Below are positions 3,183-10,738 of a DNA stretch of 64,000 nt, one piece after another. Location: assembly GCA_017347445.1 (NCBI GenBank), contig AP021856.1, positions 1,558,613 to 1,622,612 on the forward strand, written 5' to 3'. The stretch is from Candidatus Brocadia pituitae (lineage in GTDB: Bacteria; Planctomycetota; Brocadiia; Brocadiales; Brocadiaceae). Below the pieces are notes generated by a model. That model had not been told where the DNA came from. It ran no database searches and was given only the letters and a program-made list of their open reading frames with translations. The translations under genes were made by a program, and so were the position numbers. How positions within the stretch are numbered: position 1 is the stretch's first letter; every line of letters starts with the position of its first letter.

Positions 3183-4510
3183 CACTACTGTCCGGACGTT
3201 TAAATAAATATTTGTTGTAAGTATTATAATTCAAGAGAGATACAAGGGAAAAAGGACATAATCGATTTGAAATTCAACGTATACTATAGCCATTCTATTC
3301 TTCATAACAAACAGAAAGGAATGGCTCATGAATATAGGAAAAACTGTTTTCTCACAAGTAATCGATTTTTTACCCATGCATGAATTTCGCAAATGTGTTC
3401 AGCGTTATGAAGGCAATCACAAAGTAAAAAGCTTTTCATGCTTTGATCAATTTCTCTGTATGGCATTTGCTCAATTAACCTACAGAGAAAGCCTCCGGGA
3501 TATTGAAGCCTGCCTGCGCTCGATGCAAGAGAAACTCTACCATATGGGAATTCGTGGTAAGGTTTCTCGCAGTACTCTAGCGGATGCAAATGAGAACAGA
3601 GACTGGCATATTTATGCTGATTTTGCTCAAGTATTGATTCATAGAGCAAGAGACCTCTACAGTAATGATGAATTTTGTATAGAACTTGATCAGACCGTTT
3701 ATGCCCTGGATTCCACAACGATTGACTTATGCCTTTCCCTTTTTCCTTGGGCAAAATTTAGAAAGTATAAAGGAGCTATAAAACTGCATACTCTCATGGA
3801 TTTGCGCGGCAGCATTCCTTCGTTTATCAAAATTACCGACGGTAAGGTTCATGATATAAACGTTCTTGACGACCTTATTCCAGAGCCTGGTTCTTTCTAC
3901 GTAATGGATCGTGGGTATCTCGACTTTGCACGGTTGTATAACCTCACCTTGTGCTTGGCATTCTTTGTTATTCGTTCTAAAACAAATCTCAAATTTCGGA
4001 GAATCTACTCACATCCGATTGATAAATCACTTGGTCTGATATGCGATCAAACCATAGTTCTTTCAAATGCCGACTCAGCAAAAGATTATCCGGAAAAGTT
4101 ACGGCGAGTGGGCTATTACGATGCTGAAAATCAAAAAAATCTTACTTTCCTGACGAACAACTTTTCCCTTCCCGCCATTACCATTGCTCTTATTTATAAA
4201 TCTCGCTGGCAGATTGAATTATTTTTCAAGTGGATAAAACAACACTTGAGAATAAAAGCCTTTTACGGTACTTCTGAAAACTCGGTAAAAACTCAAATAT
4301 GGATTGCAATCTCTGTTTACGTGCTTGTTGCAATTATCAAAAAGCGCCTCAATTTGGACATAAGTCTCTACACAATTTTACAAATTTTGAGTATTACCCT
4401 ATTTGAGAAAGTCCCTATTTTACAAGTACTTGCAAATTCTGATCACAAAAGCGAACCACGCGCCCTCTATAAGCAATTGCCTTTGTTCAACTTATAACCG
4501 GACACTAGTG
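3183..4510 (+). mobile_element. IS4-family insertion sequence, complete, with 9-bp target duplication
   Basis: The element is 1328 bp. The left end reads CACTACTGTCCGG and the reverse complement of the right end reads CACTAGTGTCCGG, a 13-bp inverted repeat with one mismatch. It is flanked by the direct repeat AAAAGAGGT (3174-3182 and 4511-4519). One transposase gene fills most of the element. Intact ends and an undecayed duplication suggest a fairly recent insertion. It lies just upstream of the remains of an HNH-like ORF, probably in that gene's leader. Confidence 0.92.
3328..4497 (+). CDS. IS4-family DDE transposase
   Basis: This 389-residue protein has the RNase H-like DDE fold of IS4 transposases. 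The catalytic residues appear to be Asp128 (in LDSTTIDL), Asp194 (in VMDRGYLDF) and Glu297 in the Y-(2)-R-(3)-E-(6)-K signature (YKSRWQIELFFKWIK). The N-terminal part (LTYRESLRDIE and KVSRSTLADANE) matches the usual DUF4372/DNA-binding region of IS4 proteins. The frame is intact with no internal stop, so the protein may be active. It ends 13 bp before the element's right end, as is normal. Confidence 0.93.
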   Translation: MNIGKTVFSQVIDFLPMHEFRKCVQRYEGNHKVKSFSCFDQFLCMAFAQLTYRESLRDIEACLRSMQEKLYHMGIRGKVSRSTLADANENRDWHIYADFAQVLIHRARDLYSNDEFCIELDQTVYALDSTTIDLCLSLFPWAKFRKYKGAIKLHTLMDLRGSIPSFIKITDGKVHDINVLDDLIPEPGSFYVMDRGYLDFARLYNLTLCLAFFVIRSKTNLKFRRIYSHPIDKSLGLICDQTIVLSNADSAKDYPEKLRRVGYYDAENQKNLTFLTNNFSLPAITIALIYKSRWQIELFFKWIKQHLRIKAFYGTSENSVKTQIWIAISVYVLVAIIKKRLNLDISLYTILQILSITLFEKVPILQVLANSDHKSEPRALYKQLPLFNL

Positions 4511-4618
4511 AAAAGAGGTATATGAAAATAGACTATTAAAATTATGGGCGAGAAAATCGTTTGTATTTATTGTTTGAAAGATAGTTCTAGCACAAGAAAT
4601 TTGGAACATGTCATTCTA

Positions 4619-5763
4619 GTGCTTAATTGCATAAATTCATTATAGTATTTCTTAATTGCGAACCCTTAACCTCTCTCTTACGCCACACGAAAGGTTTTGC
4701 ATTCGGTTGATAAGCTTCGATGAATGCCTCGATTGCACACCTCAATTGCTCAACACTTTTAAAGCTGGCGTTCTTCAAAGCTTTTCTCGAAAGAATACCA
4801 AACCATATTTCCACCTGATTGAGCCAACTTGCAGAAGTAGGTGTAAAATGGAATTTAACATTCGGGTGTGCTGCCAACCATTCCCCGTTTCGCTTGTGAA
4901 TACAGTAGTTGTCGAGAATAACATGGATTTCCTTCTTGTCGCTATCCGGTAAATCCAAAAGCAGTTGATCCATGAATGCCAGAAATTCCACTCGTCTTTT
5001 TAATTCTGTTGTTTGCGTATGAATAGTTCCTGTTGCCACGTTGAGAGCTGCAAACAGGTTCAGCGTCCCATGACGCTTATAGGTACTTTTAAGACCATGT
5101 ACGATTTTTCTGTTGCTTGTACATACATAGCCTTTGGTTCGCTCTAAAGCTTGTATACTTGGCTTTTCGTCAACAGAAATCACTATGGCATTCTCTGGCG
5201 GGGACAGGTATAAACCTACGATATCAGCCGCCTTGGTCGTAAATTCCGGGTCAGTACTCACACACCAGCTTCTTTGCCGCGCAAGGCAAATGCCTTCCTT
5301 TCGAAGAATACGCCAGATGGCATCGTCTGATGCCCCCAAATGCTTTGCAAGGGAGGGACCATCCCAACTTGCCTGTCCTTTTGGCGGCTCAAGCTCCAAT
5401 GTCTTCAAAACCTGATTGCGAAACTCCTTATCATATTTCGCAGGTTTGCCGGAACGAGGCAGATCGTACAAGCCTTTGATCCCGTTTGTACTAAAGCGAC
5501 CACGCCACTCAATAACAGTTTTCTGGGATGTCCCAAGGGCTGTGGCCACCTTATTCACCTGCTCTCCGGCAAGCAGCATGTTCATGATTTTAGCTCGTCC
5601 AACAAGCCTCCACTCTGCACTCCGACTATTAGCCCATTCGGCAAGAATCTGCCGATCTTGCTCCGAACAACAAGGTATTGGTGCTTTTCTTGGCATGGCA
5701 GACCTCCTTCATATAGAAATAAAAGGAGTCTACTATATTTAACTTATTTTTGCAAGTATACAC
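4619..5763 (-). mobile_element. IS630-family insertion sequence, copy 1
   Basis: The element is 1145 bp and is flanked by the TA dinucleotide (4617-4618 and 5764-5765), the hallmark of IS630/Tc1-mariner insertion. The left end begins GTGCTTAATTGCA and the reverse complement of the right end begins GTGTATACTTGCA, an imperfect inverted repeat. It carries one transposase gene. Copy 2 (59429-60573) has the same length and reads the same wherever I compared them, so both are recent and probably active. Confidence 0.92.
4623..5696 (-). CDS. IS630-family transposase (copy 1)
   Basis: This 357-residue protein has an N-terminal helix-turn-helix region (VNKVATALGTSQKTVIEWR), a winged-helix segment and a DDE_3 catalytic domain. 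The likely catalytic residues are the Asp in VISVDEKP, the Asp in VILDNYCIHK and the Glu in WLNQVEIWF. The stop lies 4 bp inside the element's left end. The upstream region, about 67 bp, holds an AGGAGGTC ribosome-binding site directly before the ATG. The protein is identical to the one encoded by copy 2 at 59433-60506. Confidence 0.95.
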   Translation of the reverse strand: MPRKAPIPCCSEQDRQILAEWANSRSAEWRLVGRAKIMNMLLAGEQVNKVATALGTSQKTVIEWRGRFSTNGIKGLYDLPRSGKPAKYDKEFRNQVLKTLELEPPKGQASWDGPSLAKHLGASDDAIWRILRKEGICLARQRSWCVSTDPEFTTKAADIVGLYLSPPENAIVISVDEKPSIQALERTKGYVCTSNRKIVHGLKSTYKRHGTLNLFAALNVATGTIHTQTTELKRRVEFLAFMDQLLLDLPDSDKKEIHVILDNYCIHKRNGEWLAAHPNVKFHFTPTSASWLNQVEIWFGILSRKALKNASFKSVEQLRCAIEAFIEAYQPNAKPFVWRKREVKGSQLRNTIMNLCN

Positions 5764-6023: not shown

Positions 6024-6134
6024 CTGATGGAACTGCATGGGGGGGACATCAGCGTCGAGAGCAAACCGGGCAAAGGGAAATATCTTTTGGTTTACCGTGC
6101 CACTAAAAAGGGTATTACGCAAAAAATCTATTAA
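6024..6134 (+). pseudogene. 3' remnant of a sensor histidine kinase (HATPase C-terminus)
   Basis: The translation gives LMELHGGDISVESKPGKG, the G2-box end of a HATPase_c domain. After a one-base frame change it continues as [18 protein letters not shown] and a stop at 6132-6134. The same ending occurs in the two intact kinases downstream ([23 protein letters not shown]). No start or kinase core is present upstream, so this is the tail of a kinase deleted or displaced before or during the IS events. It sits 17 bp before the next kinase gene, whose AGGAGGAGG ribosome-binding site lies in that gap. Confidence 0.75.
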
Positions 6135-6151: not shown

Positions 6152-7783
6152 ATGGTGGAGTTTTTTCAGAATCTCTTTACCCAAGATTTTATGCCTCATG
6201 GGCAATGTTTACTATGGAGGCCTGAAATCTTATGGCTATTCGTAATCTCAGACGGCATTATTACCGCATCATACTATTCTATTCCTGTTGCACTACTTTA
6301 CTTCGTGCGGAGACGAAAAGACCTGGAGTTTAAGTGGATGTTCATCATGTTTGGTTTATTCACTTTCTCATGTGCCAACACGCACTTTCTGGATATCTGG
6401 ACCCTATGGAGTCCTTCTTATAGGCTTGAAGGTGTCGCAAAGTTTTTTACGGCCATAGTATCCGCATTTTCCGCCATAGCCATCTGGCCCCTTATCCCCA
6501 AGGCACTTGCACTACCGAGCCCTTCCCAACTAAGAAATGCAAACCTCGAAATGACGCGAGAAATGAATGAACGAAAGAAAGTGGAAAAAGAATTGCGCAC
6601 GTCTTACAAAAACCTTGAAGCTGCTAAACTCTTGCAGGAACAGGCCAACAGAGCCAAAACTCAATTCCTCTCGAATATGAGTCACGAATTGCGTACGCCG
6701 CTCAATGTCATCATTGGCTATACCGATCTTTTAAGTGAGCAATTACCTGGAAAACTCAATGAAAAACAGTTAAAATTTATTAGCGAAATCAGCAGTAGTG
6801 GAAAATTCCTGTTGTCTCTTATCAACGATTTGCTTGATATGTCCAAGATAGATGCGGGAGCAATGGAACTCGAAATGGAGGATGTTTCAATCGATGAATT
6901 AATTAATGGTATAGTATCCACGATGAGTCGCCAGTTTGTGAAAAAAAAGATAACAGTGAAAACAATAATTGAACCGAAGCTGCCAGTCGTGACGGCAGAT
7001 ATTAGGAAGTGTAAGCAGATCCTTATGAACCTGCTTACAAATGCAGTAAAGTTCACACCAAAGGATGGACGGGTTGAGATTTGTGCTGTTAGTGACGGAG
7101 ACTCCAGAGTCCGAATAGAAGTCAGGGATACCGGGATCGGAATCGCAGAAGATAAGATCGATAAGATTTTTTCTGAATTCTACCAGGCAGAGAATGTGAT
7201 CGATGAACAGCTTGGTGGTACCGGGATTGGGTTGGCCATAACACGACGGCTGGTAGAACTACACGGTGGGGAAATTGGTGTTGAAAGCAAATTGGGGAAG
7301 GGGAGTACCTTTTGGTTTACTTTACCACTGAAAAAATTGCCGCGAAACGAACCTTCCGAAGAAAAAGAGGTGGAGGAAGTTTTAAAAGAAAATGGTGTCA
7401 CTACTCCTAAAGGACGTCGTATATTGATAGCGGAGGATAACGAGCATAATCTGGCGATGGTCATTGAAATGTTGAATGCCCATAACCACCAGGTCGTGGT
7501 TGCTAGAAATGGACAGGAGGCGGTTGAGATGGCTAAGCTGCATAAACCGGAATTGATTTTGATGGATATTCGCATGCCGGTGGTGAATGGCCTGGAGGCA
7601 ACTCAAAAGCTTCGAGCTATACCTGAATTTGTTAATACTCCCATTATCGCCATGAGTGCCAGTACAGGTTTTGAAGCCGAAAAAACTTATTTTGCTAAGG
7701 GTTGCACCGCACACCTGGCAAAACCTATCCATTTAAAGCTACTGTATGCGGTTCTTAAAAAGTATTTAAGCGTCGAAAATTAA
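6152..7783 (+). CDS. Ethylene-receptor-like hybrid sensor histidine kinase / response regulator
   Basis: The first ~125 residues are three hydrophobic helices that match the ethylene-binding domain of plant ETR1: [15 protein letters not shown], then [13 protein letters not shown]. Asp34, Cys74 and His78 correspond to ETR1 Asp25, Cys65 and His69 with a constant offset of nine, and Cys/His bind the copper cofactor in ETR1. A short coiled linker follows, then HisKA with His178 in [12 protein letters not shown], a HATPase_c domain ([24 protein letters not shown]) and a C-terminal receiver with Asp472 (LILMDIRMP). There is no GAF domain between sensor and kinase, unlike in ETR1. Ethylene or another small hydrophobic ligand is inference. 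The AGGAGGAGG site before the ATG is strong, and the receiver-kinase gene begins 14 bp downstream, so the two are probably cotranscribed. Confidence 0.9.
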
Positions 7784-7797
7784 CTAAGGGAAATTTC

Positions 7798-9012
7798 ATG
7801 ACAAATCCAGCAAGAGTTCTTATCGTTGAGGATAAAAAGGCTAGCCGCGATATCCTAAACGAGAGGGTTATTGCACTTGGACATATTTCTATCCCTGCGG
7901 AGAATGGACTTTCTGCATTGGCTCAAATAAGAGAACAGCCTCCAGATCTCATCCTGCTTGATATAATGATGCCTGAAATGGATGGATACGAAGTTTTGTG
8001 TCATTTGAAGGACAGTGCTTCTTGGCGTCATATTCCTGTTATCGTGATCTCAGCCATCGATGATATGAAAAGTATCATACGGTTTATTGAAAAAGGTGCG
8101 GACGACTACTTAACAAAACCTTATAATCCCGTATTGCTCAAGGCGAGAATCGATTCTTGCTTGATGAAAAAGCGCCTGCATGACCAGGAAGAGCAGTATC
8201 GCCATCTGCTTGAAAAAAAAGTGCAGGAAAAAACTAGTGATCTTCAAAAAGCAAATATTGCATTAGAAAAGGCCTATAGATTGAAATCCGAATTCTTGGC
8301 AACCATGTCGCACGAACTTCGTACTCCGTTAAATGCAATTATTGGATTTGCAGAAGTCTTAAAGGATGAATTGATTGGGCATATAAATGATGAGCAAAGA
8401 GAATATGTAGACGATATTCACAGCAGCGGAAAACATTTACTCAGCATGATAAACAACGTGTTAGACCTTTCTAAGTTTGAAGCGGGAAAACTAGAGCTAA
8501 AATATGAAGAAATTTGCGTGAAAGAAGCAATAGATGACGTATTAAATACGGTGTCAGGAATTGCAAATAAAAAAAATATTTCAATAAAGAATACTATCCA
8601 ATCCGATATTCCTACTCTCGTTGTAGATCAATTGAAATTAAAACAAATACTGTTTAATCTTTTATCTAATGCAATAAAATTTACCCCCAAAAATGGTAAT
8701 GTGTGTATAGACATAACATTGAAAGATCTCTATGTACAATTTGCCATTGCAGATACAGGAATTGGTATAAAACAAGAAGATAGAGAAAAAATATTTGAAG
8801 CATTCAGCCAAGTGGATTCTTCATTAGCACGGAATTATGAAGGGGCTGGCCTTGGTTTAGCGCTTACAAAACGTTTAGTTGAATTACATGGTGGTGAGAT
8901 TTGGGTGGAGAGCTTTTATGGAAAAGGAAGTACTTTTACATTTATACTACCTTTACATCCTCTGAATCACAAGGAAATGGGTTTACACCTTGAAAAGGGC
9001 GTCGTATGCTAA
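7798..9012 (+). CDS. Receiver domain-histidine kinase (REC-HisKA-HATPase)
   Basis: This 404-residue soluble protein has an N-terminal receiver (acidic pair EDKK, phospho-acceptor Asp55 in LILLDIMMPEMDG, Lys in LTKPYNP), a coiled linker, HisKA with His172 ([12 protein letters not shown]) and HATPase_c (NLLSNAIKF, DTGIGI, GAGLGLAL). Receiver-first kinases usually receive phosphate from, or are allosterically set by, an upstream kinase. The ethylene-receptor-like kinase 14 bp upstream is the obvious candidate. Its receiver is nearly identical to that of the gene at 9105, so one arose from the other by duplication. An AAGGGAAA site precedes the ATG. Confidence 0.92.
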   Translation: MTNPARVLIVEDKKASRDILNERVIALGHISIPAENGLSALAQIREQPPDLILLDIMMPEMDGYEVLCHLKDSASWRHIPVIVISAIDDMKSIIRFIEKGADDYLTKPYNPVLLKARIDSCLMKKRLHDQEEQYRHLLEKKVQEKTSDLQKANIALEKAYRLKSEFLATMSHELRTPLNAIIGFAEVLKDELIGHINDEQREYVDDIHSSGKHLLSMINNVLDLSKFEAGKLELKYEEICVKEAIDDVLNTVSGIANKKNISIKNTIQSDIPTLVVDQLKLKQILFNLLSNAIKFTPKNGNVCIDITLKDLYVQFAIADTGIGIKQEDREKIFEAFSQVDSSLARNYEGAGLGLALTKRLVELHGGEIWVESFYGKGSTFTFILPLHPLNHKEMGLHLEKGVVC

Positions 9013-9104: not shown

Positions 9105-9920
9105 ATGACGAATCAGGCAAGAATTCTTATCGTTGAGGATCAAAAGGCTAGCCGCGATATCCTAAACGAGAGGGTTAATGCACTTGGACATATTTCTATC
9201 CTTGCTGAAAATGGACTATCTGCATTGGCTAAAGTAAGAGAGCAGCCTCCGGATCTTATCCTGCTTGATATATTGATGCCGGAAATGGATGGATACGAAG
9301 TTTTGTGTCATTTGAAAGACAGTGTTTCTTGGCGTCACATTCCTGTTATCATGATCTCAGCTATCGATGATATGGAAAACGTCGTACGATGTATTGAAAA
9401 AGGTGCTGACGACTACTTAACAAAACCTTTTAATCCCGTATTGCTCAAGGCGAGAATCGACTCTTGCTTGATGAAAAAGCGCCTGCATGACCAGGAAGAG
9501 CAGTATCGCAAGCGGCTTGAAGACTATAACTTGGACTTGGAACGCCGTTTAAAAAAGGTGGCTCGTGTTGGTACTCAATATCTTCGCAACTATGCCTCTG
9601 ACCTCCCTCGAAACTGGGCGGGCATATTCGTAATCATATTGGGAGTGGTGTACATCCTATCTTTGCTTTCATATTTTATCATAGGACTACTTCTACCCGA
9701 GGATTATATCCTGAAATTTCTCCATAAGTTACATAAGGCGGCAATTATTTCTTATGTTCCCTTATTATTTATAGTGGAAGGTTACTATATAGTCAGGGGA
9801 CTTGGAGAGAACAAAAAACATTCTGAGTTAATTATTCACGTGTTGGTTAGTTTATTCCTTTTTTCCATCCTAATTCTTGGAAATCATTTGGCTTTTAAGT
9901 GGTGGCTATCGTATATGTGA
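9105..9920 (+). CDS. Receiver domain fused to a C-terminal membrane domain
   Basis: Residues 1 to about 140 are a CheY-like receiver almost identical to that of the preceding gene, with Asp55 and LTKPFNP, followed by the same KKRLHDQEEQYR linker. The kinase domains are then replaced by a short coiled segment and three predicted membrane helices (roughly residues 175-200, 220-242 and 245-268), ending in KWWLSYM. No output domain is recognised. It could be a membrane-tethered phosphate acceptor for the two upstream kinases, but that is inference. The gene seems to have formed by duplication of the receiver and joining to an unrelated membrane segment. The membrane part is not a family I recognise. 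Confidence 0.8.
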   Translation: MTNQARILIVEDQKASRDILNERVNALGHISILAENGLSALAKVREQPPDLILLDILMPEMDGYEVLCHLKDSVSWRHIPVIMISAIDDMENVVRCIEKGADDYLTKPFNPVLLKARIDSCLMKKRLHDQEEQYRKRLEDYNLDLERRLKKVARVGTQYLRNYASDLPRNWAGIFVIILGVVYILSLLSYFIIGLLLPEDYILKFLHKLHKAAIISYVPLLFIVEGYYIVRGLGENKKHSELIIHVLVSLFLFSILILGNHLAFKWWLSYM

Positions 9921-10086
9921 CTCTGTTGAAAAACCCTTATAATTGAAAAACAGATGAAAGCAGTAGTTTTGAACATTGAAAAGTTAAAATGAAGCGATTT
10001 TCAATCAGAGAAAAAAATTTATGTGTTGGTTAAATAACAGGGGAATCGGGTTTTTCTAGAAGAAATATCAGTAGAGAGGTTCAATC

Positions 10087-10383
10087 ATGCTCAATAAAGA
10101 CGAGATAAATGGAATTCTTAAAAAACACAAGGAGTATCTCCAATTGCAGTTTCATATAACACAAATCGGATTATTTGGTTCGTATACGAGGGATGAACAA
10201 CATAAAAAAAGCGATGTTGATATTCTTGTGGAGTTTGAAAAAGGATACAAAGACTTTTTTAACTATTTACGACTAAAAAGTTATCTTGAAGAAATTCTGG
10301 GGGCATCTGTTGATCTCGTGATGAAGGAAGCTGTCAAGCCGAAGTTAAAAGATACAATATTGAGACATGTCAATTATGTCTGA
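10087..10383 (+). CDS. mntA: MntA-type minimal nucleotidyltransferase (antitoxin of a HEPN/MNT pair)
   Basis: This 98-residue protein is a minimal nucleotidyltransferase. The motif GLFGSYTRDEQHKKSDVDIL has the GSx(10)DxD pattern: Gly-Ser near residue 30, then Asp-Val-Asp as the catalytic pair. In characterised MntA/HepT pairs the MNT protein neutralises the toxin by AMPylating a Tyr near the HEPN active site. A GAGAGG element lies 7 bases before the ATG. The 3' end overlaps hepT by 17 bases in another frame. Assignment as the antitoxin follows from family knowledge; nothing here tests activity. Confidence 0.88.
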   Translation: MLNKDEINGILKKHKEYLQLQFHITQIGLFGSYTRDEQHKKSDVDILVEFEKGYKDFFNYLRLKSYLEEILGASVDLVMKEAVKPKLKDTILRHVNYV

Positions 10384-10738
10384 GAAAAAGCGCGATTGGG
10401 GCATTTTCATTGATGATATACTTGGGTCAATTGAGAAAATTGAACGATATACCGAAGGCAAAACCTTTGAAGAATTTTCACATAATGAAATAGTGATTGA
10501 TGCGGTTATAAGAAATTTTGAAATCATTGGAGAGGCTGCCAGGAATATCCCTGAAGAAATCAAAGGAAAATACCCGTTTGTGGAATGGAAGGAGATGCTT
10601 GGCTTCAGAAACGTTCTCATCCATGATTATTTTCATATAGAGGTAGAATCTGTATGGGACACTGTACAGAATAACATTCCAATCTTGAAAAAACATGTGC
10701 TGGAAATGAAGTCGAATTATGAACGGACAAACCTCTGA
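10367..10738 (+). CDS. hepT: HepT-like HEPN ribonuclease (DUF86 toxin)
   Basis: This 123-residue all-helical DUF86 protein has the RX4HXY motif of HEPN RNases (RNVLIHDYF, near residues 84-92). The conserved Tyr of that motif is the AMPylation target of MntA in studied systems. It overlaps mntA by 17 bases; a second in-frame ATG at 10376 is possible and leaves less overlap. Together they form a complete HEPN/MNT toxin-antitoxin module. A second HepT-like gene without an MNT neighbour lies at 57489-57809. Confidence 0.9.
   Translation: MSIMSEKKRDWGIFIDDILGSIEKIERYTEGKTFEEFSHNEIVIDAVIRNFEIIGEAARNIPEEIKGKYPFVEWKEMLGFRNVLIHDYFHIEVESVWDTVQNNIPILKKHVLEMKSNYERTNL

What the first reader, a model, noticed from the sequence alone, without database searches (positions are those of the whole stretch)
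6152..7783. Ethylene-receptor-like histidine kinase in a bacterial two-component cluster
The N-terminal domain has Asp34, Cys74 and His78, matching ETR1 Asp25, Cys65 and His69 with the same offset of nine. Surrounding residues (ISD...YYSIP, CANTH..DIWT) also match. In ETR1, Cys and His hold copper for ethylene binding. Kinase and receiver are intact. This would be a bacterial sensor for ethylene or a similar small molecule; what it senses in this organism is unknown.
Basis: partly seen in the sequence, partly recalled or inferred. Interest (0 to 1): 0.78.

Follow-up and report, generated by a model that had tools for sequence, protein, structure and literature searches.

The report
Ethylene-receptor-type sensor kinase in anammox bacterium
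An anaerobic ammonium-oxidising bacterium carries a sensor kinase whose membrane part is a true relative of the plant ethylene receptor, with the copper-holding residues intact but two otherwise near-invariant pocket residues changed, so it probably senses ethylene or a similar small molecule and this can be tested directly.

Summary
The ORF at 6152-7783 encodes an ETR1-type ethylene-binding domain (Pfam ETR1_N, 127 bits against a cut-off of 27) joined to a complete kinase and receiver. D34, Y41, I44, P45, C74, H78 and K97 match ETR1 D25, Y32, I35, P36, C65, H69 and K91.

ETR1 Ile62, one of seven residues required for ethylene binding, is Thr71 here, and Gly66 is Ala75. Among 46 bacterial domains aligned, this protein is the only one with Thr or Ala at those positions. 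Its two anammox orthologues keep Ile and Gly.

The host is an anammox bacterium of the Brocadia group. The gene heads a three-gene cassette: receptor kinase, receiver-kinase, and a receiver fused to an unnamed membrane domain. The cassette sits in different surroundings in two other anammox genomes. The membrane domain was found in exactly the same 3 of 33 family genomes as the receptor. Ca. Brocadia carolinensis keeps only the cassette's two ends.

Bacterial ethylene receptors are already known, and the domain occurs in about 10% of Planctomycetota genomes sampled. This is therefore a new member of a known kind, with an unusual pocket and an undescribed partner. Ligand and output are untested.

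The parts
6152..7783 (+). Ethylene-receptor-type hybrid histidine kinase (ETR1_N - coiled coil - HisKA - HATPase_c - receiver), 543 aa
6227..6514 (+). ETR1_N / ethylene-binding domain, aa 26-121; predicted membrane helices 24-54, 61-84, 90-120
6251..6253 (+). codon of Asp34 (= ETR1 Asp25)
6371..6373 (+). codon of Cys74 (= ETR1 Cys65, copper ligand)
6383..6385 (+). codon of His78 (= ETR1 His69, copper ligand)
6362..6364 (+). codon of Thr71 (= ETR1 Ile62): the only Thr among 46 aligned domains
6374..6376 (+). codon of Ala75 (= ETR1 Gly66): the only Ala among 46 aligned domains
6440..6442 (+). codon of Lys97 (= ETR1 Lys91)
7798..9012 (+). second cassette gene: receiver - HisKA - HATPase_c, 404 aa, no DNA-binding domain found
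9105..9920 (+). third cassette gene: receiver - coiled coil - three predicted C-terminal membrane helices, 271 aa; membrane domain has no Pfam match over cut-off
6024..6109 (+). degraded remnant of a kinase C-terminus upstream of the receptor; similar to the HATPase end of the receptor gene itself

Best explanation
It is a membrane sensor kinase of the bacterial ethylene-receptor family. Inferred mechanism: Cys74 and His78 on helix 2 hold Cu(I), with Asp34 and Lys97 supporting the site. Ethylene or a similar small unsaturated or gaseous molecule binds the copper from within the membrane. The change passes through helix 3 and the coiled coil (no GAF or PAS domain lies between) and alters the phosphorylation state of the kinase. 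Phosphate then goes to its own receiver and to the receivers of the two neighbouring genes. Those two receivers are 87.5% identical to each other and so are probably served by the same kinase. Neither partner has a recognised DNA-binding domain, so the output is a second kinase and a membrane-bound receiver protein. Shown here: homology, site residues, intact kinase and receiver domains, cassette linkage. Inferred: copper, ligand, direction of signalling, phosphotransfer.
For: ETR1_N far above cut-off. Cys65, His69, Tyr32 and Ile35 are invariant and Asp25 and Pro36 near-invariant in 46 domains, and all are kept here. AlphaFold model of aa 1-166 has three long helices plus a signalling helix, pLDDT 86. 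The same alignment contains AzoEtr1, which is shown to bind ethylene (PMC11819568). The kinase part is under purifying selection, dN/dS about 0.13-0.15. The three-gene cassette recurs in two other anammox genomes in different surroundings, and the third gene's membrane domain occurs in exactly the family genomes that have ETR1_N.
Against: Thr71 replaces Ile62, which is required in AtETR1, and Ala75 replaces near-invariant Gly66. The ethylene-binding domain's dN/dS against the G020 orthologue is raised (0.51 against 0.13 for the kinase, on few sites). No binding, copper or expression data exist. I found nothing beside the cassette that links it to ethylene metabolism.
Confidence: 0.6

Rival explanations
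1. The copper site is intact but the pocket has shifted: Thr71 and Ala75 (and Asn76) make it bind another small molecule (for example CO, an alkyne, or another copper-binding gas or redox species met by anammox cells) or bind ethylene only weakly.
For: Two positions that are 44/46 Ile and 45/46 Gly across bacteria are changed to Thr and Ala only here, while the copper residues are kept. The two anammox orthologues keep Ile and Gly. Six of the 24 nucleotide differences from the G020 orthologue in the domain fall within 11 bases over codons 75-78 (permutation p 0.002, post hoc).
Against: Thr is a modest change and may be tolerated. No ligand other than ethylene is supported by any data here.
Confidence: 0.25
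2. The receptor is losing its sensory function: a relic of a cassette that is being lost in anammox bacteria, with relaxed selection on the sensor domain.
For: Found in only 3 of 33 Brocadiaceae. Ca. B. carolinensis has lost nearly the whole cassette, a deletion of about 3.6 kb leaving the first ~30 codons and the end of gene 3. Domain dN/dS is raised. Transposases and a kinase remnant lie upstream.
Against: All three reading frames are intact, the kinase is strongly conserved, and six of seven binding residues are unchanged.
Confidence: 0.12
3. Resemblance without kinship: a generic three-helix membrane sensor that happens to carry Asp, Cys and His.
For: The PDB fold comparison gave only common helical arrangements, and no relative by sequence is in the held PDB copy.
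Against: 127-bit ETR1_N match and 51% identity to the Azospirillum receptor domain.
Confidence: 0.01

Closest known systems
AzoEtr1 of Azospirillum brasilense (plasmid ABSP7_p1)
   Same: ETR1_N domain with about 51% identity, same copper-site residues; Cys75, Asp35, His79 and Lys98 there are Cys74, Asp34, His78 and Lys97 here; two-component receptor with a neighbouring response regulator (PMC11819568).
   Different: AzoEtr1 keeps all seven required residues and has a PAS domain and no fused receiver. Here Ile62 is Thr, there is no PAS, and a receiver is fused.
SynEtr1 of Synechocystis PCC 6803
   Same: Bacterial ethylene-binding domain driving a histidine kinase and a response regulator.
   Different: SynEtr1 also carries a cyanobacteriochrome photosensor (PMC6682694); this protein has no such domain. 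SynEtr1 itself was not aligned here.
Arabidopsis ETR1
   Same: Asp25, Tyr32, Ile35, Pro36, Cys65, His69, Lys91 and Ser98 conserved; N-terminal membrane domain and a C-terminal receiver.
   Different: No GAF domain here; Ile62 and Gly66 changed; one conserved N-terminal Cys instead of two, as stated for cyanobacterial receptors in PMC6682694.
Other planctomycete ETR1_N kinases and the Eleftheria terrae kinase
   Same: The Eleftheria terrae protein has the same domain order without GAF or PAS.
   Different: Most planctomycete domains form a separate cluster from the anammox ones, though a joint clade is not rejected (p-AU 0.14).

Membership tests
ETR1-type ethylene-binding domain proteins (Pfam PF25487) | Profile match over the curated cut-off across the whole domain | tested here: met
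   127.4 bits against 27; profile 2-97 of 97
ETR1-type ethylene-binding domain proteins (Pfam PF25487) | Cu(I) ligands Cys65 and His69, with Asp25 | tested here: met
   Cys74, His78, Asp34
ETR1-type ethylene-binding domain proteins (Pfam PF25487) | Three membrane helices N-terminal to the kinase | tested here: met
   AlphaFold helices 24-54, 61-84, 90-120, pLDDT 86
Functional ethylene receptor | All seven residues required for ethylene binding in AtETR1 | tested here: not met
   Six kept; Ile62 is Thr71
Functional ethylene receptor | Saturable ethylene binding and a copper cofactor | not testable with these tools
   Needs expressed protein and a 14C-ethylene assay
Functional ethylene receptor | Histidine kinase with downstream receiver (bacterial type) | tested here: met
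   HisKA, HATPase_c and receiver present, partner receivers adjacent; activity itself not tested

The most novel reading that the evidence does not exclude
An anammox bacterium uses a copper-based membrane receptor of the ethylene-receptor family with a re-shaped pocket to sense a small molecule other than ethylene, and passes the signal to a new type of membrane-bound response regulator rather than to DNA.
Probability: 0.15. Interest if true: 0.75.

Novelty: new member of a known kind. Interest (0 to 1): 0.45.

Why it matters
Ethylene receptors outside plants have so far been studied mainly in cyanobacteria, plant-associated proteobacteria and fungi. A receptor in an anaerobic, ammonium-oxidising bacterium would extend small-gas sensing to a key nitrogen-cycle group. 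The natural contrast between this pocket (Thr/Ala) and two close orthologues (Ile/Gly) makes the role of Ile62 and Gly66 in ligand choice directly testable. The linked membrane receiver offers a new type of output to study.

Tried and rejected
Fold comparison with solved structures gave only generic helical matches, so it is no evidence either way; sequence searches of the PDB found no relative. The AlphaFold model of gene 3 was poor (pLDDT 52, three sequences), so it was not used for a fold search. Weak hits of the gene 3 membrane domain elsewhere are unconvincing; the best, in G331, lies among ORFs that read as an ABC transporter and its permease, not a receiver protein; no plasmid match. 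A clear transfer origin was sought by tree: the anammox domains group with alphaproteobacterial and cyanobacterial ones rather than the main planctomycete cluster, but the AU test does not reject a joint planctomycete clade. The idea that the two partner receivers evolve in concert was checked: true in G010 (98.5% identical) but not in the window or G020. Window-specific residue changes near the pocket are not clustered beyond chance at the amino-acid level (p 0.40), only at the nucleotide level. Papers on anammox together with ethylene receptors: none found in the held library. Surveys centred on cyanobacteria or proteobacteria could not be run with the tool, so those groups are sampled from plasmids only.

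Full report
Observation. The ORF at 6152-7783 is intact (543 aa) and preceded by a strong ribosome-binding site. Pfam finds ETR1_N at aa 26-121 (127 bits, cut-off 27), then HisKA, HATPase_c and a receiver. It is the only ETR1_N match in the 4.08 Mb genome, and none of 14 control genomes has one.

Host. The genome carries two hydrazine synthase alpha matches, and the nearest named DNA is Ca. Brocadia carolinensis, so this is an anammox bacterium of the Brocadia group.

Site residues. In an alignment of 46 bacterial domains (the window's included) plus Arabidopsis ETR1 (typed from my knowledge), Cys65, His69, Tyr32, Ile35, Phe58, Phe61 and Ser98 are invariant, and Asp25 and Pro36 nearly so; all are kept here, as is Lys91. 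Two positions stand out: Ile62 is Ile in 44 of 46 and Thr only here; Gly66 is Gly in 45 of 46 and Ala only here. Ile62 is one of seven residues required for ethylene binding in AtETR1; I62A lowers binding (reported in PMC8879215, citing earlier mutant work), and it lies close to the modelled ethylene sites (PMC6586836). The two anammox orthologues keep Ile and Gly. The nucleotide differences from the G020 orthologue cluster over codons 75-78 (6 of 24 in 11 bases, p 0.002, a post hoc test), which may be one local event.

Structure. An AlphaFold model of aa 1-166 from 33 sequences has three long helices and a signalling helix (pLDDT 86). Asp34 lies on helix 1, Cys74 and His78 on helix 2 and Lys97 on helix 3. 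No GAF or PAS lies between sensor and kinase, unlike ETR1 (GAF) and AzoEtr1 (PAS).

Cassette. Downstream lie a receiver-kinase (7798-9012) and a receiver joined to three predicted membrane helices (9105-9920). The same three genes in the same order occur in G010 and G020, each in different surroundings. ETR1_N occurs in 3 of 33 family genomes, and the gene 3 membrane domain in exactly those three. Ca. B. carolinensis shares the flanks, but its sequence jumps from about codon 30 of the receptor gene to the last ~40 bases of gene 3, with about 14 bases of overlap at the junction: a deletion of about 3.6 kb. The cassette was therefore probably present in a common ancestor of these two and was lost there. 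A remnant of a kinase C-terminus lies just upstream in the window.

Distribution. ETR1_N is found in 41 of 392 sampled Planctomycetota genomes and on plasmids of alpha- and betaproteobacteria, cyanobacteria and Deinococcus. In the tree the anammox domains group with the alphaproteobacterial and cyanobacterial ones, which hints at transfer, but a joint planctomycete clade is not rejected (p-AU 0.14).

Selection. Against G020, dN/dS is 0.51 in the sensor domain, 0.13 in the kinase and 0.23 in the receiver; against G010, 0.31, 0.15 and 0.23. The sensor domain changes faster than the kinase, on small numbers.

Interpretation. Membership in the ethylene-binding-domain family is secure. Function as an ethylene receptor is likely but unproven, because one of the seven required residues differs. 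Copper binding, ligand, phosphotransfer and output are inferred. Bacterial ethylene receptors are already known (PMC11819568, PMC6682694), so this is a new member of a known kind, with an unusual pocket and an undescribed membrane receiver partner.

Noticed in passing
window 9105-9920: Receiver fused to three predicted membrane helices, no Pfam match over cut-off for the membrane part, found only alongside the ETR1-type receptor in 3 of 33 family genomes.
   Followed up: partly
window 10087-10738: Nucleotidyltransferase plus HepT-like ribonuclease pair, a likely MntA/HepT toxin-antitoxin system, directly after the cassette.
   Followed up: no
window 3328-5696: Two transposase genes (DDE_Tnp_1 with DUF4372; DDE_3) just upstream of the receptor gene.
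   Followed up: no
window 9912-10018: Short sequence after gene 3 that recurs several times in another genome of the family (G013), possibly a small mobile element or an insertion-sequence end.
   Followed up: no
L032 10968-11423: In G020 the ORF next to the cassette reads like an alpha-acetolactate decarboxylase (judged by eye).
   Followed up: no
L033 5880-8001: In G010 the receivers of cassette genes 2 and 3 are 98.5% identical, a sign of recent gene conversion.
   Followed up: partly
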